Below are positions 1,427-43,083 of a stretch of DNA of 64,000 nt, piece by piece. The translations under genes and the position numbers were made by a program. Source of the DNA: Elusimicrobium minutum Pei191 (GTDB lineage: Bacteria > Elusimicrobiota > Elusimicrobia > Elusimicrobiales > Elusimicrobiaceae). The DNA lies in contig NC_010644.1 of the NCBI RefSeq assembly GCF_000020145.1, forward strand, positions 868,001 to 932,000, given 5' to 3'. The notes under the pieces are model-generated. The model saw only the letters and a program-made list of their open reading frames with translations, did not search any database and was not told where the DNA came from. Position 1 is the stretch's first letter, and each line of letters opens with the position of its first letter.

Positions 1427-2407
1427 ATGACAAGATTTACCTCCGCTGTGCTTATAACCGTGCTGTTTTTAAACCTGCCCTTAACGGGCTTTGCCCGGGC
1501 AAAGAACCCCAAAATAGTAATGCTTGAGATTGACAGCATAAAACAGAAAATACAGAATTTAAATAAAGAACTTGCTTCTTTACAAGACTATCAGGAAAAG
1601 CTTCAAAAAGAATATGAGGAAAATTACGAAAGAAAAATAAATGCGGGCGCGGAAGAAAAAACCGCCCGCTACCTGGCTATTACCGAAACCACTGAAAGAA
1701 GTTTTGCCCAGGTTTTCGGGCAAACGCTTTTAATGCCGGGCAATATCCAGGCGCGTATTTGGTATACCGGTAAATTTATAAATATAAGTCACCCGATAAT
1801 GCAGGAAAAACTTATTTCCGCCGGGCAGGGGCTGTTTGTCATAATTACTTTGGGGGAAACTCTTAGAGGCATGCTTCTTATTGAAAAAGCGATAAGAACA
1901 AGCGGCGCCGCCGCCACACGCTTAAAATACGGCATAAAAGGCGCCAGCTGGATGCTTTTGGCGGCCACAGCAGTACACCAAACGATGACATTTTCCAAAG
2001 ATTTCTCCTACTTCAACCACCCCGGAGTGGAAACATATAAAAAGGTTGAAATGTTAAAAAAATACCCTTCTTTATTCGCATCCTCTTCGGAAGATATTGA
2101 TGATACCGCTTACAATCTGTACGCTATATTTGCAGAGTATCCCGAATTAAAAACATATATGAACAATTATTACACTACGGTAAAACTTTTAAACAAACAT
2201 CCTTTCGTGCCGGAAAGAGTTTTTGAAAAACTTAAAAATTATCCTACGGAAAAACTTACTGTGGAAAAGTTTTATGAAATACTTGCCTCTTCTTTAACAA
2301 CTTACAATTTTGAAATGGAATATAAAGCAAAAAAACAAAGAGAGCAGCAAGCCAGGCAAAAACCCGTGTTTGAACAAAACACACTTTCCTTATTAAAAAG
2401 TATATAA
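1427..2407 (+). CDS. exported helical protein, divergent member of the paralogous family
   Basis: 326 aa with an N-terminal signal peptide (MTRFTSAVLITVLFLNLPLTGFARA). A strong coiled coil follows at about residues 30-75 (SIKQKIQNLNKELASLQDYQEKLQKE). Two hydrophobic stretches lie in the middle (ISAGQGLFVIITLGETLRG and GIKGASWMLLAATAV), with a Lys/Gln-rich tail. The segment SSEDIDDTAYNLYAIFAEYPEL resembles the DTDLxxLxRDxxxLF motif of the proteins at 37.8-43.1 kb, so I place it as a divergent paralog. Function unknown; presumably anchored to the inner membrane facing the periplasm. AAGGAG precedes the ATG by about 12 nt. A plain TATAAT lies near 1370, and the AGGTCT box of its relatives is absent. 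Confidence 0.7.
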   Translation: MTRFTSAVLITVLFLNLPLTGFARAKNPKIVMLEIDSIKQKIQNLNKELASLQDYQEKLQKEYEENYERKINAGAEEKTARYLAITETTERSFAQVFGQTLLMPGNIQARIWYTGKFINISHPIMQEKLISAGQGLFVIITLGETLRGMLLIEKAIRTSGAAATRLKYGIKGASWMLLAATAVHQTMTFSKDFSYFNHPGVETYKKVEMLKKYPSLFASSSEDIDDTAYNLYAIFAEYPELKTYMNNYYTTVKLLNKHPFVPERVFEKLKNYPTEKLTVEKFYEILASSLTTYNFEMEYKAKKQREQQARQKPVFEQNTLSLLKSI

Positions 2408-10103: not shown

Positions 10104-10147
10104 TTTTTTTCTCCATTGACACATTTGGATTGAACTTCCTTTAATTA

Positions 10148-16932: not shown

Positions 16933-16966
16933 AAAAAAATTCCCGCCGTTAAGCGGCGATTTTTTA
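16933..16966 (-). terminator. terminator of the 17-kb exported helical protein gene
   Basis: Short GCCG/CGGC-type hairpin between a seven-A run and a T-tract; weaker than most terminators here. Confidence 0.5.
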
Positions 16967-18106
16967 TTTTATACCGTATTTTTTTAAATTTACTTTATTT
17001 TCAAGTTTTACTTTCACCTGCTTTTTTAAATCTTCATGCTTTTTCTGTTCTTCAAGCAGCGCTTCTTCTGGTTTTTGCGCCAGATCGTGAACGTCGTCTA
17101 AAATAACTTTTATAGCGGCGGTTAATTCTTTATTTTTTTCTATTTGATTTAAAACGGAGTCATCAGCCTGTAAAAATAAAGCGAAATTATTTTTTATTCT
17201 TATAACAGCCGCGTCATCACTTGTTTTGGCGCTGAGAGTATCAACCGTAAAAAGCAACGCCGAAACCCATAAAAATCTTTTAACAATACCTTTAACGCCC
17301 TTGGCGTTACGAAGCGCCCAGCTTTCATCTCTAACGGCGGCATGTTCATAAATCATACCTTTACCTTCAAGGTAAGCATTTCTGTATTTTTTTAATTCCA
17401 ATAATGCTTGAGCCTGTTCGGTTTGGGGCAATTTATTTACAAAAATTTCCTCTCTTAACCGTTTTACAGGTATCAAGTCTGTGGTGTTTTCAATATTCGC
17501 ATATAACTTTTCCTTCATTTGTAAAAATTTTTTTACGGGCATCCTTTCATCAAGGTATTCTTTAAGTATATAAGCGGAACTAAAGGAAATATCGTCAATT
17601 GCTCCAATCATATAAGTACTTTTTGATATTTTTGGGGATAGTCTAAGTTTTTGCCAGTTCTGTATATTTAAAGAAACTTCATGAGCTTCTAACGTAGCAA
17701 AAGAATCCAAAAACCCGCTGCCGCTTCTAACCCCTCTTCTTCTTAAAGTTAGAAATTTATTTCGTAAGTTCACATCTTTTGTTACGGTGGCGTAATCTAT
17801 AACATCATCTATAAAAGATTTATTAAGATGATAGTTTTCTACAATATATCCGCCTACTTTTACATCAACTCTTATCACACTGGCCGTGTTTAAAATTTTA
17901 TAAGCCACAAAAGCTATGCCGCCTCCGATAAAAATTTTTAAAGGAATATTCATACCGGCTAAAGTAACTTCGTCTTGTTTAAGACGTGTTTGGTATTCTT
18001 TTAGTGTTTGAGGGTGTTTTTCCCCGGCGGGCACTTGGGCGGATAAATTACCGCAAATTAAAACCCCGCATAAAAATATTGATATAAGTTTTTTAAGTAT
18101 TATCAT
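16964..18106 (-). CDS. exported helical protein, paralogous family member
   Basis: 380 aa. Signal peptide MIILKKLISIFLCGVLICGNLSAQ. A hydrophobic stretch lies near residue 57-72 (LKIFIGGGIAFVAYKIL). A long helical middle follows, then a second hydrophobic segment (GIVKRFLWVSALLFTVDTLSA). After it comes KTSDDAAVIRIKNNFALFLQADDSVLNQI, matching the position and general pattern of the DTDLxxLxRDxxxLF block in the 37.8-43.1-kb proteins. The C-terminus is a Lys/Glu coiled coil. Function unknown. Its boxed promoter ends only nine bases before the ATG, so the message has almost no leader and no ribosome site. Probably inner-membrane anchored with a periplasmic body. Confidence 0.75.
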   Translation of the reverse strand: MIILKKLISIFLCGVLICGNLSAQVPAGEKHPQTLKEYQTRLKQDEVTLAGMNIPLKIFIGGGIAFVAYKILNTASVIRVDVKVGGYIVENYHLNKSFIDDVIDYATVTKDVNLRNKFLTLRRRGVRSGSGFLDSFATLEAHEVSLNIQNWQKLRLSPKISKSTYMIGAIDDISFSSAYILKEYLDERMPVKKFLQMKEKLYANIENTTDLIPVKRLREEIFVNKLPQTEQAQALLELKKYRNAYLEGKGMIYEHAAVRDESWALRNAKGVKGIVKRFLWVSALLFTVDTLSAKTSDDAAVIRIKNNFALFLQADDSVLNQIEKNKELTAAIKVILDDVHDLAQKPEEALLEEQKKHEDLKKQVKVKLENKVNLKKYGIK

Positions 18107-26326: not shown

Positions 26327-26434
26327 AAAACCCCTCTTACGTGATAATTTTTTAGCTTCAGTATTATGCTATTAAATTAATACATTTCTTTCAAGAAGTA
26401 TTATATGCATATATGCGCGCATTGGAAAAGTATT

Positions 26435-26486
26435 TTTTACACTAATTTTACAGTAGTATAAACAAACTATGCAATTTTAGTGTAAA
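26435..26486. promoter_or_regulatory. operator-like repeat array between divergent genes
   Basis: TTTTACACTAA (26435-26445) is followed directly by TTTTACAGTA (26446-26455). A perfect inverted copy TTAGTGTAAA lies at 26477-26486. This gives two direct half-sites one helical turn apart and one inverted site, between the PAS gene (minus) and the small basic gene (plus). Likely bound by a repressor or activator not identified here. Confidence 0.55.
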
Positions 26487-26554
26487 TTTATTACAATATA
26501 TTTGTTGTAGTTCTATTGTTAAGACTAATAACAATAAACAGCGGGGCAAGGCTT

Positions 26555-26713
26555 ATGTCTGGTAGAAAAAAGAAGAAAAACGTCTTAAAGAAAGACGGGG
26601 AAATAAGCCAGGGTGCCTGTAAAGAAAAAACTCCCATAGAAAGCTTGAGCGATTATCTTATAGGCGACGGCTGGAAAATAATGACGTTTTTGGGAGGGAA
26701 GGGGAAAAAATAA
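26555..26713 (+). CDS. small basic protein, 52 aa
   Basis: Start taken at 26555 (MSGRKKKKNVLKKDG), with GGGGCAAGG just upstream; a TTG 13 codons earlier is possible. The product has a Lys-rich head, a single Cys, a mid part ESLSDYLIGDGWKIMTFLGG and a basic end. No known family. Support: its own divergent upstream region with the repeat array, and a strong terminator 33 bp after the stop. It could be a small regulator of, or adaptor to, the PAS protein encoded divergently (guess). Confidence 0.5.
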   Translation: MSGRKKKKNVLKKDGEISQGACKEKTPIESLSDYLIGDGWKIMTFLGGKGKK

Positions 26714-26746
26714 CAACCTTTCTTCCAAAATTATGCGTTATTAATC

Positions 26747-26785
26747 AAACTCCCGGGTTTTAAACCCCGGGAGTTTATTTTTTTG
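26747..26785 (+). terminator. terminator of the small basic protein gene
   Basis: AAACTCCCGGG / CCCGGGAGTTT stem (with GGTTTTAAACC loop pairing) and seven T. Confidence 0.9.
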
Positions 26786-26886
26786 TATTTATACCATAGC
26801 AAACAGCGCAAACTACAAGAGAGCGATACAAAAATTACCCTAGGCGGCAATATTCAATTTAGGCAGCGGCGGCGCCGGATTTATAA

Positions 26887-27107
26887 AACTTCCCATACTA
26901 GCGCCCGGGATTTCTTTTGTTTCAAAGCTGCGGTTTCCCTCAACAACAAACAGTAACGCCTCCGAAGCGGCAAGGCGGAGGCATCGTGAAATCAAGATAC
27001 TATCTATACCCCGGCTTAGAAGGGGAAGCCGTATTGCCCCGTCAAGTCTATAAGAGTGTCCGGACTATCTATACCCCGGCTTAGAAGGGGGAAGCCGTAT
27101 TCTCATA
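26887..27107 (-). repeat. terminator-associated intergenic repeat, copy 3 (enlarged)
   Basis: On the minus strand it starts ATGAGAATACGG directly after the T-tract of the 27.2-kb gene terminator. An internal 37-38-bp module (positions 26999-27035 and 27064-27101, containing CCCCGGCTTAGAAGGGG) is tandemly duplicated with a 65-bp period, making this copy longer than the others. Then come GATTTCAC, the CCTCCGCC / GGCGGAGG-type stem, and CAAAGCTTTGAAACAAA-like end sequence with a small deletion. Confidence 0.8.
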
Positions 27108-27148
27108 AAAAAATTCCCGGAAAGTTTTGCCTTTCCGGGAATTTTTTT
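27107..27148 (-). terminator. terminator of the duplicated exported protein gene
   Basis: AATTCCCGGAAAG / CTTTCCGGGAATT stem between seven A and seven T. Confidence 0.9.
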
Positions 27149-27165
27149 GTTGTTTTTAAGGCTAA

Positions 27166-29514
27166 TTAAAATACTTTACCGTTTATTTTAACGTTTTTAC
27201 CGGTTTTGTCTTTAGCGGTGCCGTTTATTATATAAACTCCGTTACCTCTTTCTCTAAGCTTGCCTATGTCAATACGGTTTTCTCCTTCAGTAAGGCTTAC
27301 AGAACCTATTTTAAGGCCGCTCAAATTGTAAATATCGCATTTTCCGTTGCCGCAATTTTCAAGTCTGACGTTAAGATCTTGGTTTCTTATGGCTCCTAAA
27401 AAAGTAACTTTAGGAGCGTCCGGTTTATCCTCATCCTCAACACCTGTAGACGGTTCATATTCACCGGTAGCAACCGGCATTACAAATTTTGCGATGGTTA
27501 CAAAACCTTCTCTTTTTCCTGTATTTAAAGTAAGATTTTGGTTTTTATTTCTGTTAAGCGTTAAAAGATAATATTGCTCGCTGTTTGTAACCAACAATTT
27601 ACCTTTCTCATTATATAGAACAATATCATCTTGGCTTATTTTGTCAGCCGTTAATTCTTTTAAAGAAGAAAATGAGGTCACAATAGTGCCTGAAGGGCAT
27701 TCTGAGTTAATATAATTAAGCATACCCTGCATTCCTTTGTTAAAAGCCTCAGATGTATAGTTCATGGCGCATTTGTAGTCTTTTAATAAAATATATCCTG
27801 TGTTTTCACCGTCCATGGTTACCGCTCTTGCGTCTTTTAAAACAGCCATGCTGTCAACACCGGCGGAGCCGTTTCTTTTTTCTTCCTCAAACTTAGTGTC
27901 GGAATATAAAAGCGAGAATCTTGTAATATTTTTTTGAACAGATTTTAACACCTGCCCGGTTTGAGCGTCCCTTACAAGAAGTATAAAATCCCCGTCAACA
28001 AAAAGTTTGCTTGAGCCCACAGTGCCCATACCATCCCAGGTTCCGGCAAGGTTACCTTCACCCACAGGCTGTTCAAAAACTCCGCCTTCCCAAACTTTAA
28101 CGGTATCAGTATCAATTACCGGCGCGCTCTTTGTACTTCTAACTTTTATTTCTTGTCCTCTTGTATTAAGAAGCACAGCTGAATTTAAATCTTTAGAATT
28201 TGCTTTGGCGGACTTTGCCCCTGCAAGCAAACCGTTAACAAAAGCTGTCTTTTCCACATGAACCTCTACGTTAAGTTTGGCGGGTTGGTTTGCCACGTTA
28301 ACATTATAGGCGTATTTTACAGGGGTAAATTCCTTTACCACGCTGATTCCGCCGCCTAATGAAACCTGTGAAGATGTAAGTGTTACCGCAAGGTTATCCG
28401 CCGTTACAACGCCTGGTTGCGGAGGGGGAGGTTCGTCACCGCCGCCGTCATCGGGGTCTTCGGTAATAACCGGCATTTTTGTTTGCATCATAAATATAAC
28501 ACCCGAATACTTTCCGAAAGGAAGCGTGGGTTCTTTTTTTACAGGCACAGAATAGAAATAAAGATAATATTCCTCTCCGTTGGTTTTAACAGGTTTACCG
28601 TTTAAATCTCTTATAGTAGCCGTCATGGTATTTAAAGTATCAGCCGGGAAATTTTTATATTTGGTTTTATCATTATCATCTTGCACGAAACCATATCCTA
28701 TAACATTGTTCGCGCAAAAACCGTTATACTCCCTGGCTATAGCTTCAACGCCTGCGTTGTAGGCTTCTGTTGAAGTTACGTCAGCCCCGCAGCCGTAATT
28801 TTTAACAATAATATAACCGTGCTGAGCGTCGCCGTTAGTCATTTTAGTTTCTTTTACTTTGAGGTAATTATCTTCATTTACAACTTCAAAATCGGAGTAA
28901 TAAGGCATAAAATGTTCGCCTACAGAAGAATGGCTGCCTACTATTAAATCTGTTTTAACGTCTCTTACCAAAGTTAAAATCATGCCGCCCATGGGATATT
29001 TTTTACCGTTTACCGTGCCATATCCGTCCCATTCTTCTTGAATTTCATGTTCCCCCGGGGTAAGAGTAAAAATATTTGATTCCCATATTTTATACATATT
29101 TTGCTCAACATCTTCCTCATCACTGCCTCTCGTAGTCCCCGCTTTTGTTTTAGGGCCTTCTGTAATGGCCTTTAACATATTATAATCTGCAAAAGATTTT
29201 GAGCTTAATATGTTTTTTACTGTAGTTTTCGACGAGGAAAAAGATTTAAGACTTTTGGTTCCGGAAATGGAATTTATAAAATCAGATTTCGGAGTATATA
29301 TTTGAAATTTTACTTGGGCGGGTTCATCCGTATCAATTTTTGCCTTAACAGAATAGGGGAGCTTGACTCTTACTACTTCTTTTCCGTTAATGGTAAGTAT
29401 GTCAAAGCCTATTTCGGGAATAACTTTTGAAACATAAATGTCAGCTTTACAGCATATGCTTGAAAATATCAACAAAAAAACAAGCACAAAAAACAGCCTT
29501 AAAGGTCTTTTCAT
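27166..29514 (-). CDS. exported protein with internal duplication and FlgD-like Ig segments
   Basis: 782 aa. Signal peptide MKRPLRLFFVLVFLLIFSSICCKA. Two related halves (about residues 27-355 and 372-700) are joined by an Asp/Gly/Pro hinge (DPDDGGGDEPPPPQPG). Each half contains a stretch like the FlgD Ig fold: EEWDGYGTVNGKKYPMGGMILTLVRD and GTWDGMGTVGSSKLFVDGDFILLVRD. Each ends in a TKMPV / AKFVMPV block. A further C-terminal domain (CDIYNLSGLKIGSVSLTEGENRIDIGKL...NGVYIINGTA) resembles the C-terminal beta-sandwich of secreted proteins of Bacteroidetes and relatives. Probably surface or periplasmic; function unknown. GGAG precedes the ATG. Confidence 0.8.
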   Translation of the reverse strand: MKRPLRLFFVLVFLLIFSSICCKADIYVSKVIPEIGFDILTINGKEVVRVKLPYSVKAKIDTDEPAQVKFQIYTPKSDFINSISGTKSLKSFSSSKTTVKNILSSKSFADYNMLKAITEGPKTKAGTTRGSDEEDVEQNMYKIWESNIFTLTPGEHEIQEEWDGYGTVNGKKYPMGGMILTLVRDVKTDLIVGSHSSVGEHFMPYYSDFEVVNEDNYLKVKETKMTNGDAQHGYIIVKNYGCGADVTSTEAYNAGVEAIAREYNGFCANNVIGYGFVQDDNDKTKYKNFPADTLNTMTATIRDLNGKPVKTNGEEYYLYFYSVPVKKEPTLPFGKYSGVIFMMQTKMPVITEDPDDGGGDEPPPPQPGVVTADNLAVTLTSSQVSLGGGISVVKEFTPVKYAYNVNVANQPAKLNVEVHVEKTAFVNGLLAGAKSAKANSKDLNSAVLLNTRGQEIKVRSTKSAPVIDTDTVKVWEGGVFEQPVGEGNLAGTWDGMGTVGSSKLFVDGDFILLVRDAQTGQVLKSVQKNITRFSLLYSDTKFEEEKRNGSAGVDSMAVLKDARAVTMDGENTGYILLKDYKCAMNYTSEAFNKGMQGMLNYINSECPSGTIVTSFSSLKELTADKISQDDIVLYNEKGKLLVTNSEQYYLLTLNRNKNQNLTLNTGKREGFVTIAKFVMPVATGEYEPSTGVEDEDKPDAPKVTFLGAIRNQDLNVRLENCGNGKCDIYNLSGLKIGSVSLTEGENRIDIGKLRERGNGVYIINGTAKDKTGKNVKINGKVF

Positions 29515-29642
29515 AGTGCATTCTCCATTAAACTACAATTGTACAGATATCTTTATTATATGCAATAAAATAGTCATGTCAATATATTATTTTATATTAG
29601 AACTGATATAACAGGGTACTGCCTTCAAATATTTTTAAGGGC

Positions 29643-29671
29643 TTGACTTTTATCTATTATATGATTATTAT
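29643..29671 (+). promoter_or_regulatory. promoter of the paired exported protein genes
   Basis: TTGACT (29643-29648), 17 bp, TATTAT (29666-29671), about 50 bp before the first start codon. Confidence 0.6.
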
Positions 29672-29719
29672 ATTAAGAGTATAACAACTATTTACCCTTT
29701 AATAAAAAGGGGAGGGAAT

Positions 29720-30250
29720 ATGAAAAATATTATAGTTTCATTATGTTTTGTCTTATGTTTAGTGTTTTTTGCCGCATCTTCTCAGGCGGAAACCATTACT
29801 ATGGTTACTATCTTACCTAAACCCGCTGCGGCCTTTGTGAATTTAGATGTAAAAAAAGATTCACAGTTTTACCAAATGGAATTAGGCAAAAATACCGAGA
29901 TGGAAGTTGAAACCAAAGAAATAAACGTTGAAAATGTTTTTGTCGGTAATTCAATGCAGGTAGCCACGCTTGATACGACCAGTGAAGCCAGTTTTAAAAC
30001 CGCGAATGTAGGCGGAACTTTGGTTGTCGACGGTGCTGATGGTATTGCGGCTAAAGAAATCAAATTTAACGCTGTTACAATTAATAATGTGGCTCTTGAA
30101 AAACCGGCGGTAAAAGCTGCCGCATCTGACGGTAAAGCCTATAATGACACATCAGTATCAAAAGCCGCGGCAACACTGGCATACCAAACTATTCCGGCCG
30201 CGCCCTTGAACCAGGCTTCAGGCACATATAGGGCTTTAGTAGCGCAATAA
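29720..30250 (+). CDS. exported beta-rich protein, first of a pair
   Basis: 176 aa. Signal peptide MKNIIVSLCFVLCLVFFAASSQA, then ETITMVTILPKPAAAFVNLDV, a motif shared with the next gene (ETIDSVAFHPSPTGNYDVLNI). The remainder alternates short hydrophobic strands with Asn/Thr/Gly and repeats of the type VENVFVGNSMQVATLDTTSEASFKTANVGGTLVVDGADG, which suggests a beta-solenoid. Similar exported proteins with a YPSPYG-like motif near the N-terminus occur in Elusimicrobiota-type genomes (from memory, not checked). Function unknown. GGGAGGG lies seven bases before the ATG. Eleven bp separate it from the next gene. Confidence 0.75.
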   Translation: MKNIIVSLCFVLCLVFFAASSQAETITMVTILPKPAAAFVNLDVKKDSQFYQMELGKNTEMEVETKEINVENVFVGNSMQVATLDTTSEASFKTANVGGTLVVDGADGIAAKEIKFNAVTINNVALEKPAVKAAASDGKAYNDTSVSKAAATLAYQTIPAAPLNQASGTYRALVAQ

Positions 30251-30260
30251 GGAGATAATT

Positions 30261-30965
30261 ATGAAAAAATTTATACCAATACCGTTTGTTTTATTATTAA
30301 CAGCTTTCTGTTTTGCGGAAACCATTGACAGCGTTGCGTTCCACCCTTCGCCAACCGGTAATTATGACGTGCTTAATATAAGCAAAAACCTTGAGCTTAA
30401 AGAAAAAGCAAATATTAATTTTTTAGAAGCTAAAGGCAGTTTAACCGTAAAAGGAACTGACGGCGGCGCGGGCACAATAGTGGTAGGCAAAGGGTTAACT
30501 GTAGGCCAGGCGGCAAGTTTGCCCAGCGCTGAACTTATTACCCCGAAATTAGATATTACGGGCACCTCAGAAGTTGATGTTAAAGGTAACGCGAAAATAG
30601 CAAAACTGGCTAACGACGCAAATACAAAAGCGGCTACTTTTAACGCCCAAAACGTTCTTACCTGTAAAGTAAAAGGGCAAGATTCCGCCAGCAATATTTC
30701 AGTGCAAACACAGGGCGGCGGGTATGCGGCGTTCCCTTCAGCAAGCGCGAGCGGAACTTTACGCTGGGTTGAAATACAGGATATAAGCGGCGGGAAGCAT
30801 ATGATTTTAGTTGAGCAATCGGCAGGAACTGCAAATTGTAAGGCAAATGATTACTGCTGTATAGATCCTTCCTCTACGGCCTGCCTTACCAGCATGAAAG
30901 ATAATATTGCAGCCGCTTCAACAATTCAAGTAGGCAATGAAAGCCAAACAATTATATGTAATTAA
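30261..30965 (+). CDS. exported beta-rich protein, second of a pair
   Basis: 234 aa. Signal peptide MKKFIPIPFVLLLTAFCFA, then ETIDSVAFHPSPTGNYDVLNISKNLELKEKANINFLEAKGSLTVKG. The middle has repeated beta-type segments (TIVVGKGLTVGQAASLPSAELITPKLDITG). The C-terminal third contains several Cys (NCKANDYCCIDPSSTACLTS and a final IICN) that may form disulfides outside the cytoplasm. Paralogous to the preceding gene; both are probably one operon. GGAG lies before the ATG and a terminator directly follows. No function recognised; a structural surface component is plausible. Confidence 0.75.
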   Translation: MKKFIPIPFVLLLTAFCFAETIDSVAFHPSPTGNYDVLNISKNLELKEKANINFLEAKGSLTVKGTDGGAGTIVVGKGLTVGQAASLPSAELITPKLDITGTSEVDVKGNAKIAKLANDANTKAATFNAQNVLTCKVKGQDSASNISVQTQGGGYAAFPSASASGTLRWVEIQDISGGKHMILVEQSAGTANCKANDYCCIDPSSTACLTSMKDNIAAASTIQVGNESQTIICN

Positions 30966-30974
30966 TTTAACACT

Positions 30975-31010
30975 AAAAAAAGGGCCTTCAAGTTGAAGGC
31001 CCTTTTTTTT
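30975..31010 (+). terminator. terminator of the paired exported protein operon
   Basis: AGGGCCTTCAA / TTGAAGGCCCT perfect stem with eight T. Confidence 0.9.
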
Positions 31011-31175
31011 ATGATAGGATAAACACCTCCTGCGTAAGCCGGGGGATGGATAACCTCTTATTTCGCAACACCTCCGCCTTACTGCCGCGGAGGTGTTGCT
31101 GTTTGTTGTTGAGTGAAACCGCAAAGCAAAGCTTTGAAACAAAAGAAACTCCTGGGCGTTAAACCGGGTAGTTTC
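31011..31175 (+). repeat. terminator-associated intergenic repeat, copy 4
   Basis: Plus-strand copy, starting ATGATAGGA right after the eight-T tract. It has CTCCTGCGTAAGCCGGGGGAT, then TTTCGC plus a nearly perfect AACACCTCCGC / GCGGAGGTGTT hairpin, then GTTGAGTGAAACCGC, AAAGCTTTGAAACAAAAGAAA, and a terminal hairpin GAAACT / AGTTTC. It is the only clear copy, besides the degenerate one at 47.7 kb, on the plus strand, and its terminator is also on plus. Confidence 0.85.
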
Positions 31176-31347
31176 ATTGCTCCCGCTAAGAAGGTGTGTC
31201 TAAAAATAAAAGCAACAGCAAAAGTAATTAAGTACAGATTATCCTTTTTACACTGCTTTATAAACCGATATCTTTTTGTTTTTAATTATTATGTTTTATA
31301 ACAGCGCTGCCTGAAAATTATGAAACGGCTGTTATATCTAAATACAC

Positions 31348-31386
31348 AAAAAAACCTCCCCCGGTTTTTGCCGGGGGAGGTTTTTT
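31348..31386 (-). terminator. terminator of the FKBP gene
   Basis: AACCTCCCCCGG-TTTTTG-CCGGGGGAGGTT hairpin flanked by A and T runs. Confidence 0.9.
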
Positions 31387-31397
31387 AGTAAAATAAG

Positions 31398-31814
31398 CTA
31401 GTTTACTTCAACTATTTTAACATCAAAAAGCAATTCTTTACCCGCTAAAGGATGGTTAAAATCAAGCTCAATTTCTTTATCGGAAACTTTTGTAACCACC
31501 GCTTGAAAGCTGTGCCCGCCCGATTGCGCGCCGACAACATCGCCCACTTTAATTTCTTTAGCGTTCGTAATAGCCTCTGCTGGAACGGTTTTTTTAGCTT
31601 CAGGGTTTACTTCGCCGTAACCTTCAGCGGCGGCAACGGTGACTACTTTTGATTCGCCCGCTTTCATGCCTTCAAGTTCTTTTTCAAGCCCTTTAATTAT
31701 ATGTCCCGCGCCGTGAACGTATTCCAAAGGCGCTCTCCCTTCGGAAGTATCCCTTACTTCGCCGTCAACCTTTAAAGTATAATCAAACTTCACTTTTGAG
31801 CCTTGTTTTATCAT
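31398..31814 (-). CDS. FKBP-type peptidyl-prolyl isomerase (SlyD-like, no metal tail)
   Basis: 138 aa. The FKBP fold is split by an insert-in-flap domain, as in SlyD. N-part VKFDYTLKVDGEVRDTS...APLEYVHGAGHIIKGLEKELEGMKAGE; inserted chaperone domain about residues 65-118 (AAEGYGEVNPEAKKTVPAEAI...VGAQSGGHSFQAVVTKVSDKEIELDFNHPLAG); C-part KELLFDVKIVEVN. The His/Cys-rich metal-binding tail of E. coli SlyD is absent. Cytoplasmic prolyl isomerase and folding helper. GGAG lies before the ATG. Transcribed alone. Confidence 0.92.
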   Translation of the reverse strand: MIKQGSKVKFDYTLKVDGEVRDTSEGRAPLEYVHGAGHIIKGLEKELEGMKAGESKVVTVAAAEGYGEVNPEAKKTVPAEAITNAKEIKVGDVVGAQSGGHSFQAVVTKVSDKEIELDFNHPLAGKELLFDVKIVEVN

Positions 31815-31921
31815 TCTTATCTCCTGTTAGTGATTTTATATTTCCTGTATTAAGAATGACTTATATTTAAGGCAAAATAAATACAATAGAAATATTTTTA
31901 AAATTAAATTGCGCCGTCAGC

Positions 31922-33553
31922 TTACAAATCCTCTGTGTAGGATATATTTTTTGTTTTGCTAAACTCCTCAACCAACCCGCTGCCGGCAATAAAGGCAAGC
32001 TGCCCGGATTTGCTTGTGTGGTGCTCTTCAAAAAGCTCGCTGCCAAAATCTATTTCGCACCAGTTAAACTGTGTTTCCGAATAAACGCTTTCCACGTAAG
32101 CGGCGTATTTACTTACCCATTTATGTTCAACTCCTAAGGCCACGGCGTAGGGCAGATATTTGGCAAAAACATCGTTATCAAGCTTTGCTTGCCCGTTATT
32201 ATCAGAGCCGCTTAAAAACTTCCTAAAACCTTCTATTTCAGATATTTTTTCAATCCCGGCGTCCGTAAACGGGGGGAAAAACCTTCTAAAAGTAATAACG
32301 GTAATTATTATAAAAATAAACATACTGCCTAAATACAAAATACCGCCCCCAGAACTAAATAATAAGAAAATAAAACCTAACAAACCCAAAACATAGCCGG
32401 TTATATCAAGCGCTTTATCGCTTCTTATATATTTGGATTTAACATGCTCTTTGGCGTTTTTTTTGTGGGCGCTTATTATAGATTGTATTTCTTTGGATGT
32501 TTTATCAGCGGGTGTAAATTTTTTGGCGCCTCCTTCAAATAAAACGGAAAGTAAAGCTTTTTCATCTTCAGAAATACTCTTATTTTCTTTACCTGTTTTT
32601 TCCAAATATATGTTTTTACCGCTTAACACAATTTTTAAAATGCCGTTAACAGCCATGTTTAAAATAGAAGACGTAAGCATTTTATATCTGTCTTTAATCT
32701 GGCCGGGGTTTTTTTTATATAAGTAGCGTACGGCCGCAACGCTTAAATCAGAAGGCGGCGTTGAAACTGTTTTATCTTCCTGCGGTTTCCTGTTTCTTAA
32801 AACTATCCATACAATAATATAGTAAATAAGCAGCGTAAAAATTATTAAAAGGGGCAAAACAATTTTTTTATTATCCGCCATAAAATCATGGAACTCACTG
32901 ACGGCGGGTGCGGAAACCGTTCCTTTGGGTAAACCTAAAGAAATAATAACGGAGGCGTCTTTATTGTCTTTATTTTCAAAATTGAAATTCAGCTTACCTT
33001 CGGAATACTCCCTGCCGCCGTTAAATTCGGCTAATTTACCGTCAACACCGTATAGTGTTTTTAAATAAACGGGAATCACGCCCTTGGGTAGATTAACGGT
33101 AACGGAAATATTTGAAGGATTGTATTTATTAAAAGAACCGGTTGTATCTATATAAAGCTCGTCGGAATCGCTATAAAATTTTATTAAAGAGGTTTTGTAA
33201 TATACGGTATATTCATGGCTGCCTTTTTTAAGGTCTGAAGAGTCAATAAAAATCCTTTTACTGTTTGGGGTGTTTTGCTCTGTATAGGCTACGGGTTGGC
33301 CGTCTTTTTCAACGGATAAAATTTTAAAATCCTTATCTTTTTTTACCCACAGGGCGGAATTATGTATTGTGTTAAAATCCTTAAAAAAAGTATCGGGTGT
33401 TTCATCTTCGCCTATATCGAAAACCAGTTTTTCTTTAACAAGTACAGCCGGGGAATCGGCTAGCGTAATATCTGCCTTATAATCAGTTAAAACGGCGGCG
33501 TTGAGCCCGGGTAAAGCTGACAATAATATAAGCAAAGCGTATATTTTTTTCAT
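31922..33553 (-). CDS. DUF2207-family membrane protein
   Basis: I start at 33553 (MKKIYALLILLSALPGLNA, signal peptide), preceded by AAAGG; an in-frame Met 21 codons upstream would add a charged, non-signal N-terminus. About 543 aa. The periplasmic beta domain (residues 20-225) carries the DUF2207-like pattern (ADITLADSPAVLVKEKLVFDIG...HEYTVYYKTS). Then a transmembrane helix (VLPLLIIFTLLIYYIIVWIVL), a cytoplasmic segment and further hydrophobic helices (GYVLGLLGFIFLLFSSGGG), with a C-terminal soluble part. It follows a LemA gene by 13 bp, a common partnership. Function not established. Confidence 0.85.
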   Translation of the reverse strand: MKKIYALLILLSALPGLNAAVLTDYKADITLADSPAVLVKEKLVFDIGEDETPDTFFKDFNTIHNSALWVKKDKDFKILSVEKDGQPVAYTEQNTPNSKRIFIDSSDLKKGSHEYTVYYKTSLIKFYSDSDELYIDTTGSFNKYNPSNISVTVNLPKGVIPVYLKTLYGVDGKLAEFNGGREYSEGKLNFNFENKDNKDASVIISLGLPKGTVSAPAVSEFHDFMADNKKIVLPLLIIFTLLIYYIIVWIVLRNRKPQEDKTVSTPPSDLSVAAVRYLYKKNPGQIKDRYKMLTSSILNMAVNGILKIVLSGKNIYLEKTGKENKSISEDEKALLSVLFEGGAKKFTPADKTSKEIQSIISAHKKNAKEHVKSKYIRSDKALDITGYVLGLLGFIFLLFSSGGGILYLGSMFIFIIITVITFRRFFPPFTDAGIEKISEIEGFRKFLSGSDNNGQAKLDNDVFAKYLPYAVALGVEHKWVSKYAAYVESVYSETQFNWCEIDFGSELFEEHHTSKSGQLAFIAGSGLVEEFSKTKNISYTEDL

Positions 33554-33566
33554 TTTTAAATACCTT

Positions 33567-34103
33567 TTATATTTTTGTAAAAGTAAAATCAAAATATTCT
33601 TTCTTGTTAAAATCAAGCATTTTAGCCACTATATTAACGGGAAACGCACCCGTTACGGTGTTCATATCCCTTACGGCGTGATGATAACCGCCCGAAGCGT
33701 ATTTAATTTTTCTTTCCACTTTTTCAAGTTGTGTTTTACAGGATTGGAAATCCTCATTTTCTTCAATTTTTTTTATTAAATAAAGCTGTCTTAAAAAAGA
33801 AGAAAAATTTTCGGCAAGAACCTTCTCTTCTAAAGTTCTTTTTACAGGGTCAGCAGAAAAATCAATTTCTTCTTTCAGATTGTTTGCTAAAGATAAAAAG
33901 GATTTGTTATCCTGCATACCATACGACGCTATGGAAGCCATTTTTTTTATAACATCGTTTCGCGCGCGCAGGTGTATATCTAAAGTATTCCAGGCGGTGT
34001 TTAAAGCTTTTTCAAGTTTTTGCATTTTATAATAAGAATAAGCGCAAAAACCTAAAGTAGGAAAAATTATGAATGCGGCAATTAATAAAGGTGTCATATA
34101 CAA
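33567..34103 (-). CDS. LemA-family protein
   Basis: 178 aa. One N-terminal membrane helix (LIAAFIIFPTLGFCAYSYYKM), then the LemA four-helix region: LEKALNTAWNTLDIHLRARNDVIKKM..., FLRQLYLIKKIEENEDFQSCKTQLEKVERKIKYASGGYHHAVRDMN, ending FPVNIVAKMLDFNKKEYFDF. LemA proteins are membrane-attached helical bundles of unclear function, often linked to DUF2207/TPM-domain genes as here. The start could be this ATG or one two codons later; no good ribosome site is visible. Confidence 0.88.
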   Translation of the reverse strand: MYMTPLLIAAFIIFPTLGFCAYSYYKMQKLEKALNTAWNTLDIHLRARNDVIKKMASIASYGMQDNKSFLSLANNLKEEIDFSADPVKRTLEEKVLAENFSSFLRQLYLIKKIEENEDFQSCKTQLEKVERKIKYASGGYHHAVRDMNTVTGAFPVNIVAKMLDFNKKEYFDFTFTKI

Positions 34104-37779: not shown

Positions 37780-39072
37780 ATGAATAAAATAAAAAAAATA
37801 TTGGGATTATCTCTTTCTATAGTGCTTATCTCAAATAGTTTTACATATGTGTCCGCACAGGATATCGGAAAATTAAAAAAAGAAATTACAATTTCCGACT
37901 CTGACGCTATACGTATTTATAAAAAAATAGAAACAAAATTTCCTGAAATAAAACCAACCCCGCAGGGAATCAGCGCGGTTGCCGCCGGTACAGCGCTTGC
38001 AGCCGCACCTATTGTTTTAATCTATAACAATAAAATTTTTAATGTTCTTGCCGAAACGAATATCGTACACATACAAAACGATTTAGCCGAAACATTCCGC
38101 AACTATTTAACGGCAAAGGAAATCATTTTTGTAAAAGAAGCCCGCGTCCTGGAGTCGGCAGTAAAACATGCCGAAGGCAACTTTGCCAGACAATTACTTG
38201 CCCAAGGTAAAACATTTACCTCTTTTAAAGCCAATGTTTACCCTGATTTTGTGGGAAACGTTGATTTTTTTAAAACTATTTTCGACTTAAAAAGAGCGGA
38301 AGAATACCTTGAAATGGCCAACCTTACCAAAATAAATAAAGCTTTTCCACATTTAAGCCAAGCTCAAAAAGCCCAGCGAATGGCTAGATATATTGACGAA
38401 GCCACAAAATGCCTTGAAGTAGCAAAAATAAGAGACGGGCATAATTTAGGTTTTTTTATGATAGACGCCGATTTTGTTAAAAATGTTGAGAATGTAGCCC
38501 AGTTGAGCAAAAGAGCTAACGCTCTCGCCTCGGAAGCCGCGCAAGCCCAAATAAAAGCGGTTAATGCCGCAAGGTCGGCTTCAGCCGCAAAAGCGGCGGG
38601 TGTAAGCAAAGCCGCAAAAATCGGAAGAGCCGTCGGAAAAGGCCTTATAGTAATTTCCGTAGCGCTTGTTTCTTACAGCATCATAAGCTCTGCTTTTAGT
38701 GAAGATGAATCCGGCCCATCTTTAGCCAAATTAGACGAAACGGACCAGCAGAATCTTTTAAGGGACCCTTCTTACGTCTTCCACATTCCGCAAGCCGTCA
38801 GGGAAAAAGCGGGAATAGAAGATTACGCTGTAAGTTTTCAATACTTCTTGCAAAAATATGACAACGACCCCGAATTCGCCAAATCGGCGGATAATGATTT
38901 TGCCAAAATAAAAGCAAGCCAAAACATGATTAGGAAAGCTTTAACGCCTGAGCAGAAAAAAGAATTACAGCTCCAAAAAGCTAAAGAAATTCTTAAACAG
39001 AGTAAAACTCAGCAAAAAACGGCGCAGGCTAAAACAGAAAATATGAGAGCGCAAATAGCCTCAAATTTATAA
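37780..39072 (+). CDS. exported helical protein, paralog 1 of the tandem cluster
   Basis: 430 aa. Signal peptide MNKIKKILGLSLSIVLISNSFTYVSA. N-terminal motif ISDSDAIRIYKKIETKFPEI, then a hydrophobic stretch (ISAVAAGTALAAAPIVLIY). A long helical domain with an Ala-rich part (ASAAKAAGVSKAAKIGRAVG) runs into a second membrane-like segment (GLIVISVALVSYSIISSAF). Then LDETDQQNLLRDPSYVFHIPQAV, the family C-terminal motif, and a Lys/Gln coiled-coil tail. I know no named family; it is shared by five other genes in this window. Both ends may face the periplasm if the two hydrophobic segments span the membrane. GGAG about ten bases before the ATG. Confidence 0.8.
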   Translation: MNKIKKILGLSLSIVLISNSFTYVSAQDIGKLKKEITISDSDAIRIYKKIETKFPEIKPTPQGISAVAAGTALAAAPIVLIYNNKIFNVLAETNIVHIQNDLAETFRNYLTAKEIIFVKEARVLESAVKHAEGNFARQLLAQGKTFTSFKANVYPDFVGNVDFFKTIFDLKRAEEYLEMANLTKINKAFPHLSQAQKAQRMARYIDEATKCLEVAKIRDGHNLGFFMIDADFVKNVENVAQLSKRANALASEAAQAQIKAVNAARSASAAKAAGVSKAAKIGRAVGKGLIVISVALVSYSIISSAFSEDESGPSLAKLDETDQQNLLRDPSYVFHIPQAVREKAGIEDYAVSFQYFLQKYDNDPEFAKSADNDFAKIKASQNMIRKALTPEQKKELQLQKAKEILKQSKTQQKTAQAKTENMRAQIASNL

Positions 39073-39105
39073 TTTGCGGTAAAATAAAAAACAGAGACAT
39101 AAACA

Positions 39106-40065
39106 ATGATGATTAAGCGTATATTTATAAGCATTATTTTATCATTAGCGCTGTTAAACAACGGCGTATGTCTCTGTTTTGCGCAAAGCGCGCCTCTTCC
39201 CACGGACGAAGAATGCATACGCTTAATACGTGAAATAGAACAAAAAGTAAACCAATTAAATATTAAAAGAGAGCGCGGGCATAAAAAAGGATTTGCAACA
39301 TCCGTTACGGGGTTGTTTTTAATGGCAGGCGCGCACCCGGTATTGCTTTTATCCCAACAGCAAGCGTTAAAAAAACTGCACCTGTCTTTAAATGAAACAA
39401 AGCGCGCAATGACAAATATTTATAACGCCGAAGGCAGTCTTTTAAGAATATCTAATGACCAAACCTTCCGTCTTCATTATTACAAAAACGCTCTAAACAG
39501 CCTTCATCAGGCGTCGGAAACAAAAAATATTTCTAAAATAAACCTTCTTTTGGACGAAGCTATCAACGATTTTGGGGAAATACTTATTTTGGAAAACAAA
39601 GCGCAAAAACCTTTTTTTAGAGAATCATCCGAGTTTTTAAAATATTATGATGAACTTCACGTTATAAAAGCCAAAACAACCAATATAGCGGCTTATTCCA
39701 ATAAAGCAAAAATGTTTTCCCGCGCGGGTTCTTTTATTTTCATAGCGGGAATTCTATATATTATGTATGAAACCGCCGCTACCAAAACCAGTTTTTCTTT
39801 AAGCGATACCGACCTGGAAGCATTAAACAGAGACATAGCCTATTTATTCCAAATGGGGGATGAACTTGTACTTTCTGCGGGTTTAAACCAAGTTAAACAT
39901 GATATAAAATTAATGCTTAACGACTATAAAAATAACCCCGGGGAGTTTTATTCCTATTTAAATTATATTTCCCAAAACAAGGAAAATATTCCCGCCGCAA
40001 GCGACACTATGCGTAAAAAGGCGGATGATTTAAAAAAGCAGATATCGGAAGATTTGAAAAAATAG
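39106..40065 (+). CDS. exported helical protein, paralog 2 of the tandem cluster
   Basis: 319 aa. Signal peptide MMIKRIFISIILSLALLNNGVCLCFA. N-terminal motif variant PTDEECIRLIREIEQKVNQL, then a hydrophobic segment (FATSVTGLFLMAGAHPVLLL). A helical middle follows, then a second hydrophobic segment (AGSFIFIAGILYIMYETAA), LSDTDLEALNRDIAYLFQMGDEL and a charged tail (MRKKADDLKKQISEDLKK). 33 bp after paralog 1 with no terminator between, so co-transcribed with it. Its stop codon is inside the distal box of the next promoter. Function unknown. Two ATG codons in a row open the frame; no good ribosome site. Confidence 0.8.
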   Translation: MMIKRIFISIILSLALLNNGVCLCFAQSAPLPTDEECIRLIREIEQKVNQLNIKRERGHKKGFATSVTGLFLMAGAHPVLLLSQQQALKKLHLSLNETKRAMTNIYNAEGSLLRISNDQTFRLHYYKNALNSLHQASETKNISKINLLLDEAINDFGEILILENKAQKPFFRESSEFLKYYDELHVIKAKTTNIAAYSNKAKMFSRAGSFIFIAGILYIMYETAATKTSFSLSDTDLEALNRDIAYLFQMGDELVLSAGLNQVKHDIKLMLNDYKNNPGEFYSYLNYISQNKENIPAASDTMRKKADDLKKQISEDLKK

Positions 40066-40130
40066 GTCTTTAGTCCTATTTTTATTTAGGTCTTTAGGCT
40101 CATGCAATAATAACGCCCTATATATATAAT
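40064..40130 (+). promoter_or_regulatory. boxed promoter of paralog 3
   Basis: Distal box AGGTCTTTAGTCCT (40064-40077) overlaps the stop of paralog 2. Proximal box AGGTCTTTAGGCTC (40088-40101), ATGCAA (-35), 17 bp, TATAAT (40125-40130). Confidence 0.9.
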
Positions 40131-40173
40131 TTATAATATAAAGATAGATTTAAGCTTATTTTAAAGAGGGTTT

Positions 40174-41550
40174 ATGAAAATACTCAAATCAGCCGCAAGC
40201 ATTATATTATCTTTTGCTCTTGTAACCGGCAGCGTAACATTGCCTTTACAAGCGCAAGACTCAATACCTAGAGACGCTAACGGACTTCCCATGGCAACCA
40301 TTACCGACGCTGAAGTTAAGGCTATGGTTCAAGAAATGGAAAAGGAACTTCCCACAGAAGTACAAGAAATTTTAAAACATGACCATAAAGCTTCCAATTA
40401 TAATGTTCCCGCAACTGCCGGCGCTTTCGCAAGTTTTACCGGCGCGTATTATGCAAGGCTTCGCAAAAGACCTCAATTAATAGCGCTTTTGGCTGAAAAT
40501 CATGAGTTTGCCATATCATATATGTCCCACACCCTTGAAAAAGCTATAGCGGCTGACCCTGCATTTGCGCAATCGGCAAAAGCCATTCAAATAAGAAGAC
40601 AGCTCAGTAATATCGGTAATGTGGATTTAACGCTTAAAGCGGAAACCACAACCGCTTTAAAAGAACTTGCGAAAAGGTTAGAAAACGCAAAAGATATCAG
40701 CGGTATGAAAGTATTTATTTATGATTTAAACAAAGCTTCCAACACTTACCCTGAAAACATGTTGAAATCTTTATCACAATTAAAAAGAGACGTGCCTTCC
40801 TTAGGGCTCACCCAGCAAGGGCAGGATATGCTTATAAAAGAACTGCAAGATATTCACAGCAAAGCCATGGGATATACTTCAGAAGGACAGAGAATAAGTT
40901 CCGGCATGCTTAAACCCGGAAGCATAGAATTAGGCGGCGGTACAAAAATAAGCATTATAGAAAAAAAGCATAACGCGATTTTAAACGTTGAAAAAGAACT
41001 CGATGTTTTACTTGCCCAAAACAAAATTTCTTATGAAAAATTTGTAGGCAGCTCTGCGGGAAGTTTAGCTAAAGAAGCAAAACATATAAGAAGCCTTAAA
41101 GCGTTTACAAAAGCGGGTAACATATTAATCGTTGTCGGCGCGGTTTTGGCCGGGTATAGTATAATGGACAGTTTTGTGTTTAACGCTCCGGATACAAACA
41201 AGCTCGACGATACGGATTTGGAATCCATGGCAAGAGATCCTATGCATCTTTTTAATATAGATTCAGCCAATTTGAAAAACCACCCTGAAATACTGGCGGA
41301 AAAAAACATGCTGGCCCTTATGTTCCAGGAAATAAGAGATAATTCCGCGAGAAAAGCAACCGTAATTCAAATAACAAAAGAACTTGTTCTTTTGGCGGAA
41401 AAAGAAAACAAAACGCCCGTAAAAAAGGAACAACTTGAGCAAAATAAAAAGAAAGACGCCATTGAAAGGCTTAAAAAAGCTAAATTACAGCAAAAGGGTA
41501 TAGCTCAGGAAATAAATTCGCAACTTCAAGACAGTATAAACCGTTCATAA
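40174..41550 (+). CDS. exported helical protein, paralog 3 of the tandem cluster
   Basis: 458 aa, the longest of the family here. Signal peptide MKILKSAASIILSFALVTGSVTLPLQA. N-terminal motif ITDAEVKAMVQEMEKELP, then a hydrophobic segment near residue 80. A long helical domain follows, with a Gly-rich break (SGMLKPGSIELGGGTKIS). A second hydrophobic segment (AGNILIVVGAVLAGYSIMDSF) leads to LDDTDLESMARDPMHLFNIDSA. The tail is highly charged and coiled-coil (KKEQLEQNKKKDAIERLKKAKLQQK). AGAGGG five bases before the ATG; its own boxed promoter and its own terminator. Function unknown. Confidence 0.8.
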   Translation: MKILKSAASIILSFALVTGSVTLPLQAQDSIPRDANGLPMATITDAEVKAMVQEMEKELPTEVQEILKHDHKASNYNVPATAGAFASFTGAYYARLRKRPQLIALLAENHEFAISYMSHTLEKAIAADPAFAQSAKAIQIRRQLSNIGNVDLTLKAETTTALKELAKRLENAKDISGMKVFIYDLNKASNTYPENMLKSLSQLKRDVPSLGLTQQGQDMLIKELQDIHSKAMGYTSEGQRISSGMLKPGSIELGGGTKISIIEKKHNAILNVEKELDVLLAQNKISYEKFVGSSAGSLAKEAKHIRSLKAFTKAGNILIVVGAVLAGYSIMDSFVFNAPDTNKLDDTDLESMARDPMHLFNIDSANLKNHPEILAEKNMLALMFQEIRDNSARKATVIQITKELVLLAEKENKTPVKKEQLEQNKKKDAIERLKKAKLQQKGIAQEINSQLQDSINRS

Positions 41551-41565
41551 AACAAAAAACTTTAA

Positions 41566-41594
41566 ACCCCGGCTTTTAATGCCGGGGTTTTTTA
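41566..41594 (+). terminator. terminator of paralog 3
   Basis: ACCCCGGC-TTTTAAT-GCCGGGGT hairpin with six T. Confidence 0.9.
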
Positions 41595-41850
41595 TCTGTT
41601 AAGCAGTCCTCATACTACACCAAAAAATGTTTATTTATATCGCTAAAGACCACTTTATGTAAATGCAGTAGCGGAGATATTTTGCTTGCCGTCCGCCTTC
41701 CCCTGCGAGAAGTCTTGGGAGGCGCTTTTTGTTATTGACCCCAAAACAAGCACCAACTTTGAAAGAAGATAATTACAAAAAGAGCAAGTTTTTTGCCCCA
41801 CGAACGCGGGGTAAATATTTACGTAAGAGGAATATTTTTATATAATAGTT
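41595..41850. other. gene-free spacer with two hairpins
   Basis: No ORF supported. Inverted repeats GCCTTCCC / GGGAGGC near 41698-41730 (followed by T's) and CCCCACGAACGCGGGG near 41797-41812. A promoter-like TATAAT near 41840 without the AGGTCT box probably serves paralog 4. Confidence 0.4.
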
Positions 41851-41892
41851 AGGTAAGGCTATCTTTTTTAACTTAACCAAACAAAAAATAAT

Positions 41893-43083
41893 ATGAAAAT
41901 AATTAAAACCTCCGCAGTAATTATATTTTGCATGTCTGCTTTTTTTGCTTTTTCGCAAGAAACGCCAAAATCCTCTATTTCCGATGCGGAGGCCGTTGAA
42001 ATTTTAAAAAACATTGAAGCGAAATTTCCAGCTTCTTTTAAAATAGAAAGGACTGACACCGCTTCAGCCGCCGCGGGACTTTCTTTATTAGGATATATGC
42101 GGGGGGATAAACTCTTCCACTTTACCGCCATGGCGCATGAAAGAACGGTTTATTTAACTTTTTTAACAGATTTTAATAGGCTTATGAATGATTTTCCTTC
42201 TAAACTAATACCTATTGATCCGCTTTACGCAAAGAATTTCCGCGGATATCTTAGCTATTTAGAGCGCGAAATAAAAATAAAAGCCAATACCTCCTCTTAT
42301 ATAGCCTATTTCGAAAAAAACGGTTATTTGGGCGGCGAATATGTTTCAAATATGGCGAAAATAGCGCAAGATTACCAAAGAGGCTTGGAATACATGGAAC
42401 GGGCTTTAAAAAGCAATGCGCCGTCGCATGTTTTAGAAAAAACAGCTATTACCGTAAAAGAAACCGAAATGCTTGAAAATGTAAAGAAAGCCAGGGATTG
42501 TTTCCGCATGATGGCAAGAACGGATTTGGAAAGTTCGGGGGGAAAATATGTTTTTTATAATGACGGGTTTAAAAAAAGCATGGTTTCAATAAACAAAGTT
42601 ATAGAGGATTCTGAAAACAGGTTAAAATTTCCAAAAAAATTCGTGAAACGGGGCGTTAAAGCGGTCCCGGCGGCAAATGCGGCGGCGGCAAAACTTTCAA
42701 AAACAAACCGCGCTTTAAAAACGGCGGGCCGCTCAGTTCTTTATTTAAGTATAGCGGCAGGCGCTCTTGTGATAATTGAAAACGCTCTTACTGATATGCC
42801 TTTAACGCTTGAAGATACGGATTTAGCCTCTCTTTACCGTGACAGAAGCTTAATTTTTAAATGGGATAACGCTTTAATAGAAAAAGGCGGACTGTCGGAA
42901 TATAAAGAATTTTATAAATTTTTTCTGGAGCAATACGCCTCTAACCTAGAAACACGGGCCTACGCGGACGGACTTTTTAAACAAGAAGAAATTACCAATA
43001 ACAACCTGTCACGAGCTGAAAATAACATAAAAAGAAAAGAACTTATAAGAAAAATAAAAACAGAACTTGAAAATATAAACTGA
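41893..43083 (+). CDS. exported helical protein, paralog 4 of the tandem cluster
   Basis: 396 aa. Signal peptide MKIIKTSAVIIFCMSAFFAFS. N-terminal motif ISDAEAVEILKNIEAKFPASF, then a hydrophobic Ala/Gly stretch (TASAAAGLSLLGYM). The helical middle leads to a second hydrophobic segment (RSVLYLSIAAGALVIIENAL) and LEDTDLASLYRDRSLIFKWDNALIEKGGLSEYKEFYKFF. It ends in a basic coiled-coil tail. The C-terminal block aligns best with paralog 2 (LFQMGDELVLSAGLNQVKHDIK). Promoter without boxes; no ribosome site visible. No terminator recognised downstream. Function unknown. Confidence 0.8.
   Translation: MKIIKTSAVIIFCMSAFFAFSQETPKSSISDAEAVEILKNIEAKFPASFKIERTDTASAAAGLSLLGYMRGDKLFHFTAMAHERTVYLTFLTDFNRLMNDFPSKLIPIDPLYAKNFRGYLSYLEREIKIKANTSSYIAYFEKNGYLGGEYVSNMAKIAQDYQRGLEYMERALKSNAPSHVLEKTAITVKETEMLENVKKARDCFRMMARTDLESSGGKYVFYNDGFKKSMVSINKVIEDSENRLKFPKKFVKRGVKAVPAANAAAAKLSKTNRALKTAGRSVLYLSIAAGALVIIENALTDMPLTLEDTDLASLYRDRSLIFKWDNALIEKGGLSEYKEFYKFFLEQYASNLETRAYADGLFKQEEITNNNLSRAENNIKRKELIRKIKTELENIN

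What the first reader, a model, noticed from the sequence alone, without database searches (positions are those of the whole stretch)
37780..43083. Undescribed family of exported two-motif helical proteins, four in tandem
The proteins at 37780, 39106, 40174 and 41893 share signal peptide, an (S/T)DxEAxxIxxxIExxFP-like motif, an Ala/Gly hydrophobic segment, a helical body, a second hydrophobic segment, an LxDTDLxxLxRDxxxLF motif and a charged coiled-coil tail. The proteins at 16964 and 1427 have the same layout with weaker motifs. Overall sequence has diverged strongly, so this is an old, expanding family. Two hydrophobic segments would place the long body in one compartment and both motifs near the membrane.
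Basis: partly seen in the sequence, partly recalled or inferred. Interest (0 to 1): 0.75.

Follow-up and report, generated by a model that had tools for sequence, protein, structure and literature searches.

The report
Orphan two-pass membrane protein family
Four neighbouring genes in a gut bacterium make related membrane proteins of an uncatalogued family that also has, probably, more distant cousins in bird and mammal gut relatives; what they do is unknown, but the layout suggests parts of a cell-envelope assembly.

Summary
The four proteins (A 37780, B 39106, C 40174, D 41893) are real, homologous to each other and match nothing in Pfam, NCBIfam, PHROGs, PADLOC or the PDB. The link lies mainly in the C-terminal block. 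A profile finds a fifth member elsewhere in the genome and none in the other 340 Elusimicrobiota genomes. The 16964 protein belongs to a second, larger family with the same layout (signal peptide, TM1, variable body, TM2, C-terminal 'LxxNPxLF' module): 2-7 copies in 17 genomes of one Elusimicrobiaceae genus, often three ancient paralogues in fixed order between spoVG and a nitroreductase gene. The two families join only at profile-profile level (0 of 400 column shuffles reach the score; single-profile searches fail), so common descent is likely, not proven. The 1427 protein does not belong. Charge bias puts the body in the cytoplasm and both motifs in the periplasm. In relatives TM2 usually ends in AxAQ, like an internal signal peptide. 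In a congener the site holds one unrelated gene, so the array is lineage-specific. A-B-C form one unit closed by a terminator; D stands apart. Best reading: inner-membrane proteins whose paralogues assemble into an envelope complex. Function is inferred, not shown.

The parts
37780..39072 (+). Protein A (430 aa), member of the family; first gene of the A-B-C unit
37888..37944 (+). A motif 1 (TISDSDAIRIYKKIETKFP, residues 37-55)
37972..38022 (+). A TM1 (about residues 65-81)
38644..38694 (+). A TM2 (about residues 289-305)
38728..38784 (+). A motif 2 (KLDETDQQNLLRDPSYVFH, residues 317-335)
39106..40065 (+). Protein B (319 aa), member of the family
39196..39252 (+). B motif 1 (LPTDEECIRLIREIEQKVN)
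39304..39354 (+). B TM1 (about residues 67-83)
39715..39765 (+). B TM2 (about residues 204-220)
39796..39852 (+). B motif 2 (SLSDTDLEALNRDIAYLFQ)
40174..41550 (+). Protein C (458 aa), member of the family
40297..40353 (+). C motif 1 (TITDAEVKAMVQEMEKELP)
41116..41166 (+). C TM2 (about residues 315-331); its first hydrophobic segment is weak
41200..41256 (+). C motif 2 (KLDDTDLESMARDPMHLFN)
41564..41590 (.). Strong bidirectional terminator-like stem (10 pairs, 7 G-C) closing A-B-C
41818..41846 (+). Promoter-like TTTACG-17-TATAAT in front of D (a consensus match only; the scan as a whole finds no more sites than shuffles)
41893..43083 (+). Protein D (396 aa), member of the family, probably a separate transcription unit
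41974..42030 (+). D motif 1 (SISDAEAVEILKNIEAKFP)
42736..42786 (+). D TM2 (about residues 282-298); its first hydrophobic segment is weak
42805..42861 (+). D motif 2 (TLEDTDLASLYRDRSLIFK)
16964..18106 (-). Protein E (380 aa), member of the wider LxxNPxLF family
1427..2407 (+).

Best explanation
A-D are Sec-exported inner-membrane proteins. After the signal peptide is cut, a short capped helix (motif 1) sits in the periplasm, TM1 crosses inward, the long helical and variable body lies in the cytoplasm, TM2 crosses outward, and the motif 2 module (turn, short helix, helix of about 16-18 residues, charged tail) lies in the periplasm. Paralogues encoded side by side most likely assemble into hetero-oligomeric envelope complexes through the TM segments and the motif modules, with interchangeable cytoplasmic bodies. 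The related three-gene cluster of the sister genus looks like the same plan; there TM2 of subfamilies 1 and 3 ends in AxAQ, so signal peptidase I could cut it and free the C-terminal module, while subfamily 2 stays tethered. Shown: homology of the four, the fifth member, the layout, the conserved trio order. Inferred: topology, common descent of the two families. Conjecture: complex formation, cleavage, function.
For: Homology of the four and a fifth member. Net charge is more positive on the body side of TM1/TM2 in 42 of 47 proteins; in the E. minutum set the 15 residues before TM2 hold on average 4.3 K+R and 0.5 D+E, those after it 1.3 and 2.9. Profile link to the wider family: score 26.0 against a maximum of 15.5 in 400 shuffles with TM and soluble columns shuffled apart; soluble part alone exceeded by 1 of 400. 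Secondary structure of the two AF2 models runs in the same order around RD..LF and NP.LF. Subfamilies 1 and 2 are clades, and the order spoVG-1-2-3-nitroreductase recurs across genomes. TM2 carries xxAQ in 26 of 38 members against 14 of 403 other internal hydrophobic segments; A242-Q243 at TM2 and A22-Q23 at the signal peptide are both invariant in subfamily 1.
Against: TM1 is weak in C and D. Single-profile searches do not join the two families, and column shuffles are a lenient null because they destroy helix periodicity. E. minutum proteins lack the AxAQ after TM2 (one pattern match, in the 274434 protein, is not a true AQ). No informative gene neighbours, no solved relative, low-confidence body in the D model. 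The AxAQ counts come from homologous proteins, so they are not independent.
Confidence: 0.45

Rival explanations
1. They are exported surface or periplasmic proteins of variable body, with the conserved ends acting as sorting and anchoring signals and the fast-evolving middle facing the host gut or phages.
For: Conserved ends and strongly diverged bodies; lineage-specific array at a site that is otherwise occupied in a congener; conserved C-terminal tripeptide in relatives, 27/40 against 4/177, as a sorting signal might be.
Against: Two TM segments with net positive charge between them put the body in the cytoplasm; within a subfamily the bodies are themselves conserved across species (38-42% identity over most of the length) rather than hypervariable.
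Confidence: 0.2
2. Each protein is a stand-alone inner-membrane scaffold or chaperone-like factor; tandem copies are simple duplicates without joint assembly.
For: In the E. minutum genome two copies (16964, 274434) and the fifth close member stand alone; D is probably a separate transcription unit.
Against: Fixed order of three ancient paralogues in relatives.
Confidence: 0.2
3. A-D and the 16964-type proteins are unrelated; the similar layout is convergent (signal peptide, two hydrophobic segments, capped amphipathic helix after each). This concerns descent and can be true together with any of the functional readings.
For: No single-profile link; hhalign probability only 24-45%.
Against: Score far above 400 shuffles with motif aligned to motif and matching secondary structure order.
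Confidence: 0.3
4. They are membrane-perturbing effectors or toxins whose two hydrophobic segments insert into a target membrane.
For: Two hydrophobic segments, orphan status, tandem copies.
Against: No immunity gene seen, no toxin or defence match, chromosomal housekeeping neighbourhood in relatives, several copies per genome.
Confidence: 0.05

Closest known systems
Elusimicrobiaceae 'LxxNPxLF' proteins delineated here (window 16964, genome 274434, and the spoVG-nitroreductase trio of a genus that includes Candidatus Avelusimicrobium); not in any library searched
   Same: Signal peptide, TM1 near residue 50-60, variable body, TM2 about 100 residues before the end, C-terminal helical module with an LF motif, tandem paralogues
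   Different: A-D have RDxxxLF in place of NPxLF, an acidic stretch after TM2 instead of AxAQ, no C-terminal LAR-like tripeptide, no conserved cysteine; sequence link only at profile-profile level
Proteins with an internal signal peptidase I site after a TM helix (for example S. aureus LtaS; from general knowledge, not tested)
   Same: A TM segment ending in an AxA site on the outer face, as in TM2 of the relatives
   Different: LtaS is a polytopic enzyme; no sequence relation; cleavage not tested here; A-D lack the site
Coiled-coil families (crescentin rod PF19220, ATG16 PF08614, filament PF00038)
   Same: Long coiled-coil body in subfamily 3
   Different: Only weak hits, as coiled coils give, to one to three members of the wider family; no shared domain architecture; none hit A-D

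Membership tests
A-D family (this finding) | Significant sequence or profile similarity among members | tested here: met
A-D family (this finding) | Motif 1 after the signal peptide and motif 2 after TM2 | tested here: met
   the fifth member has weaker versions of both
A-D family: is 16964 a member? | Profile link of 16964 alone to A-D | tested here: not met
   hhalign aligned only 10 TM residues, E 0.037
A-D family: is 1427 a member? | Layout with TM1 and TM2, or profile link | tested here: not met
Wider LxxNPxLF family: are A-D members? | Signal peptide, TM1, body, TM2 about 100 residues from the end | tested here: met
   (TM1 weak in C and D)
Wider LxxNPxLF family: are A-D members? | Hit by the C-terminal profile of the family | tested here: not met
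   the profile without E. minutum rows ranks A-D at background; A6 finds only 16964 and 274434 in this genome
Wider LxxNPxLF family: are A-D members? | Profile-profile similarity above shuffled controls | tested here: met
   0 of 400 shuffles, soluble part 1 of 400; lenient null
Wider LxxNPxLF family: are A-D members? | AxAQ after TM2 | tested here: not met
   but subfamily 2 of the wider family lacks it too
Any Pfam, NCBIfam, PADLOC or PHROG family | Score above curated cut-off (Pfam, NCBIfam) or a clear E-value | tested here: not met
Known folds in the PDB | Foldseek E below 0.001 or sequence match | tested here: inconclusive
   no match, but the D model is low confidence (pLDDT 43.5)
Internal signal peptidase I substrates | Cleavage after TM2 in the cell | not testable with these tools
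   site statistics only

The most novel reading that the evidence does not exclude
A hitherto undescribed cell-envelope assembly of gut Elusimicrobiaceae, built from three or more ancient paralogous two-pass membrane proteins, in which an internal signal-peptide-like segment lets signal peptidase release the C-terminal modules of some subunits into the periplasm while others stay tethered; E. minutum has a diverged, fully tethered version expanded at its own site.
Probability: 0.2. Interest if true: 0.65.

Novelty: new variant of a known kind. Interest (0 to 1): 0.42.

Why it matters
The gut Elusimicrobiota are small-genome bacteria, with few cultured strains, whose envelope biology is little known. 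A lineage-restricted, multi-copy envelope protein family with conserved trio synteny is a concrete target for work on their cell surface or shape. If the internal signal-peptide-like segment is cut, it would be an unusual way to make a tethered and a free subunit from one gene plan. At present it is an orphan family with inferred topology, so its importance is moderate.

Tried and rejected
Structure of D: AF2 with 5 rows gave pLDDT 43.5; only the motif 1 helix (81) and parts of the C-terminal block (60-73) were better; Foldseek found nothing. A second model (subfamily 3, 26 rows) reached pLDDT 70.5, highest in a long coiled coil, again no fold hit. Weak A5 hits in other genomes (L012-L023) are mostly a TPR-like protein or a separate 190-aa family with DYKNNPE-like repeats and were not accepted. 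The A6 hit in G311 lies in what reads as a glycosyltransferase and is taken as spurious. Internal repeat idea (motif 1 and motif 2 as copies of one motif): mixed ranks of 3 to 272 among 17,246 windows, register chosen after looking; an N-C match in subfamily 2 (0 of 200 shuffles) but none in subfamily 1; left as a lead only. Recent foreign origin: GC3 of A-D (0.34-0.36) sits near the lower quartile of window genes, so no support. Phage, plasmid and viral-contig searches: none. A DNA-pattern scan of 84,980 species genomes with D found no relative, and with subfamily 1 only Elusimicrobiota or unnamed records. The E. minutum genome paper is not in the library.

Full report
Setting. The window is bases 868001-932000 of a 1,643,562-base single-contig genome; from memory that size fits Elusimicrobium minutum Pei191, and I use that name on that basis only. 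Most relatives compared belong to the same family; one genus (g2) includes Candidatus Avelusimicrobium, judged by matching contig length 32,236 (G017:C3 and L127).

Observation. They link by blastp (A-D 5e-11, B-D 3e-8, A-C 2e-7, B-C 1e-4, A-B 1e-3, C-D 3e-3), mainly over TM2, motif 2 and the tail; motif 1 gives an extra A-D match. Invariant columns of the C-terminal block include L, T-D, R-D and F of the second motif. No Pfam, NCBIfam, PHROG, PADLOC or PDB sequence match is convincing. A profile of the C-terminal block finds a fifth protein in the same genome (308 aa, L008:1468-2394, 3e-5; hhalign 5e-6) and nothing in the other 340 genomes of the phylum, two congeners (88% and 66% complete) included. 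TM2 is strong in all; TM1 is weak in C and D.

Wider family. Protein 16964 finds relatives in 15 other genomes of the 90 searched in the family, and a sixth own-genome protein at 274434. Iteration and a 21-row C-terminal alignment give 2-7 copies in 17 genomes of genus g2. Layout is uniform: signal peptide near residue 5, TM1 near 50-60, TM2 about 100 residues before the end, then RLxxNPxLFLxAxxxxLxxLExxPxxxxxC. Members of one sequence cluster occur in 15 of the 18 regions fetched, and in most of these they lie beside ispE-spoVG, usually followed by a nitroreductase gene. Where I looked in genomes without hits, and the listing was not cut, that interval holds no member. A tree of the C-terminal modules recovers position 1 (96/91) and position 2 (95/99) as clades and position 3 nearly so: three ancient paralogues in a fixed order.

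Are the two families one? Single-profile searches say no. Profile-profile comparison gives a modest score (probability 24-45%, E 2e-4 to 9e-4) that no column shuffle out of 400 reaches (real 26.0, best 15.5); without the TM part 1 of 400 exceeds it. RD..LF aligns with NP.LF, and the two AF2 models show the same order of turn, short helix and 16-18-residue helix after it. I take common descent as likely (about 0.7). Protein 1427 is not supported by anything.

Topology. The 15 residues next to TM1 and TM2 on the body side carry more net positive charge than those on the outer side in 42 of 47 proteins, although by K+R count alone only 29 of 47. With a cleaved signal peptide this gives N-out, body-in, C-out; both motifs are then periplasmic. 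In g2, 26 of 38 members have xxAQ after TM2 against 14 of 403 other internal hydrophobic segments and 18 of 100 N-terminal segments. In subfamily 1 the AQ is invariant both at the signal peptide end and at TM2. Subfamily 2 and A-D lack it. Cleavage is an inference from sequence.

Locus. In congener G079 the homologue of window gene 36420 is followed directly by one 374-aa gene (its product has no Pfam hit) and then hppA, where E. minutum has A-D; the closest match to that gene in the E. minutum genome lies elsewhere (31% identity). G078 shows the same gene beside hppA. So the array is lineage-specific at this site. Codon composition is ordinary. A-B-C end at a strong stem at 41564-41590; D has its own promoter-like site, though promoter-like sites are no more frequent here than in shuffles.

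Function. Nothing identifies an activity. The fixed trio in relatives, the tandem in E. minutum, the two-pass layout and the conserved periplasmic modules fit a hetero-oligomeric envelope assembly best, but stand-alone scaffolds or variable surface proteins remain open.

Noticed in passing
L077-L094, extreme C termini of g2 members: 27 of 40 end in a hydrophobic-small-R/Y/H/F tripeptide (LAR commonest) against 4 of 177 other proteins of these regions; looks like a terminal signal, unexplained. The pattern was drawn after seeing the sequences.
   Followed up: partly
L077:8043-9044 and other subfamily 2 proteins: Strongly conserved short motif DLSWLDEPxxPxxPKxxxxxLF in the inferred cytoplasmic body.
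   Followed up: no
L100:17546-18670 and L045:132-1265: Congeners carry one 374-377 aa exported protein at the site of the A-D array; the closest E. minutum match (31%) is at genome 1094995.
   Followed up: partly
window 9312-10124: Exported 270-aa protein with four near-identical copies of HTNNCDGYHCDAYNCALAGNENAP.
   Followed up: no
L015, L016, L017, L019, L020, L022, L023: Related 185-199 aa proteins of g2 with DYKxxPE...KDPEFAKTLQEIFxNPQF repeats; weak similarity to the A-D tail.
   Followed up: partly
window 7397-7900, 8393-8851, 16217-16765: Type IV pilin-like proteins scattered among these genes.
   Followed up: no
window 21695-33616 against L100:3250-12243: Gene order and strand differ between E. 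minutum and the congener around the PAS-like 1543-aa protein and the 29720/30261 exported pair, consistent with local rearrangement.
   Followed up: no
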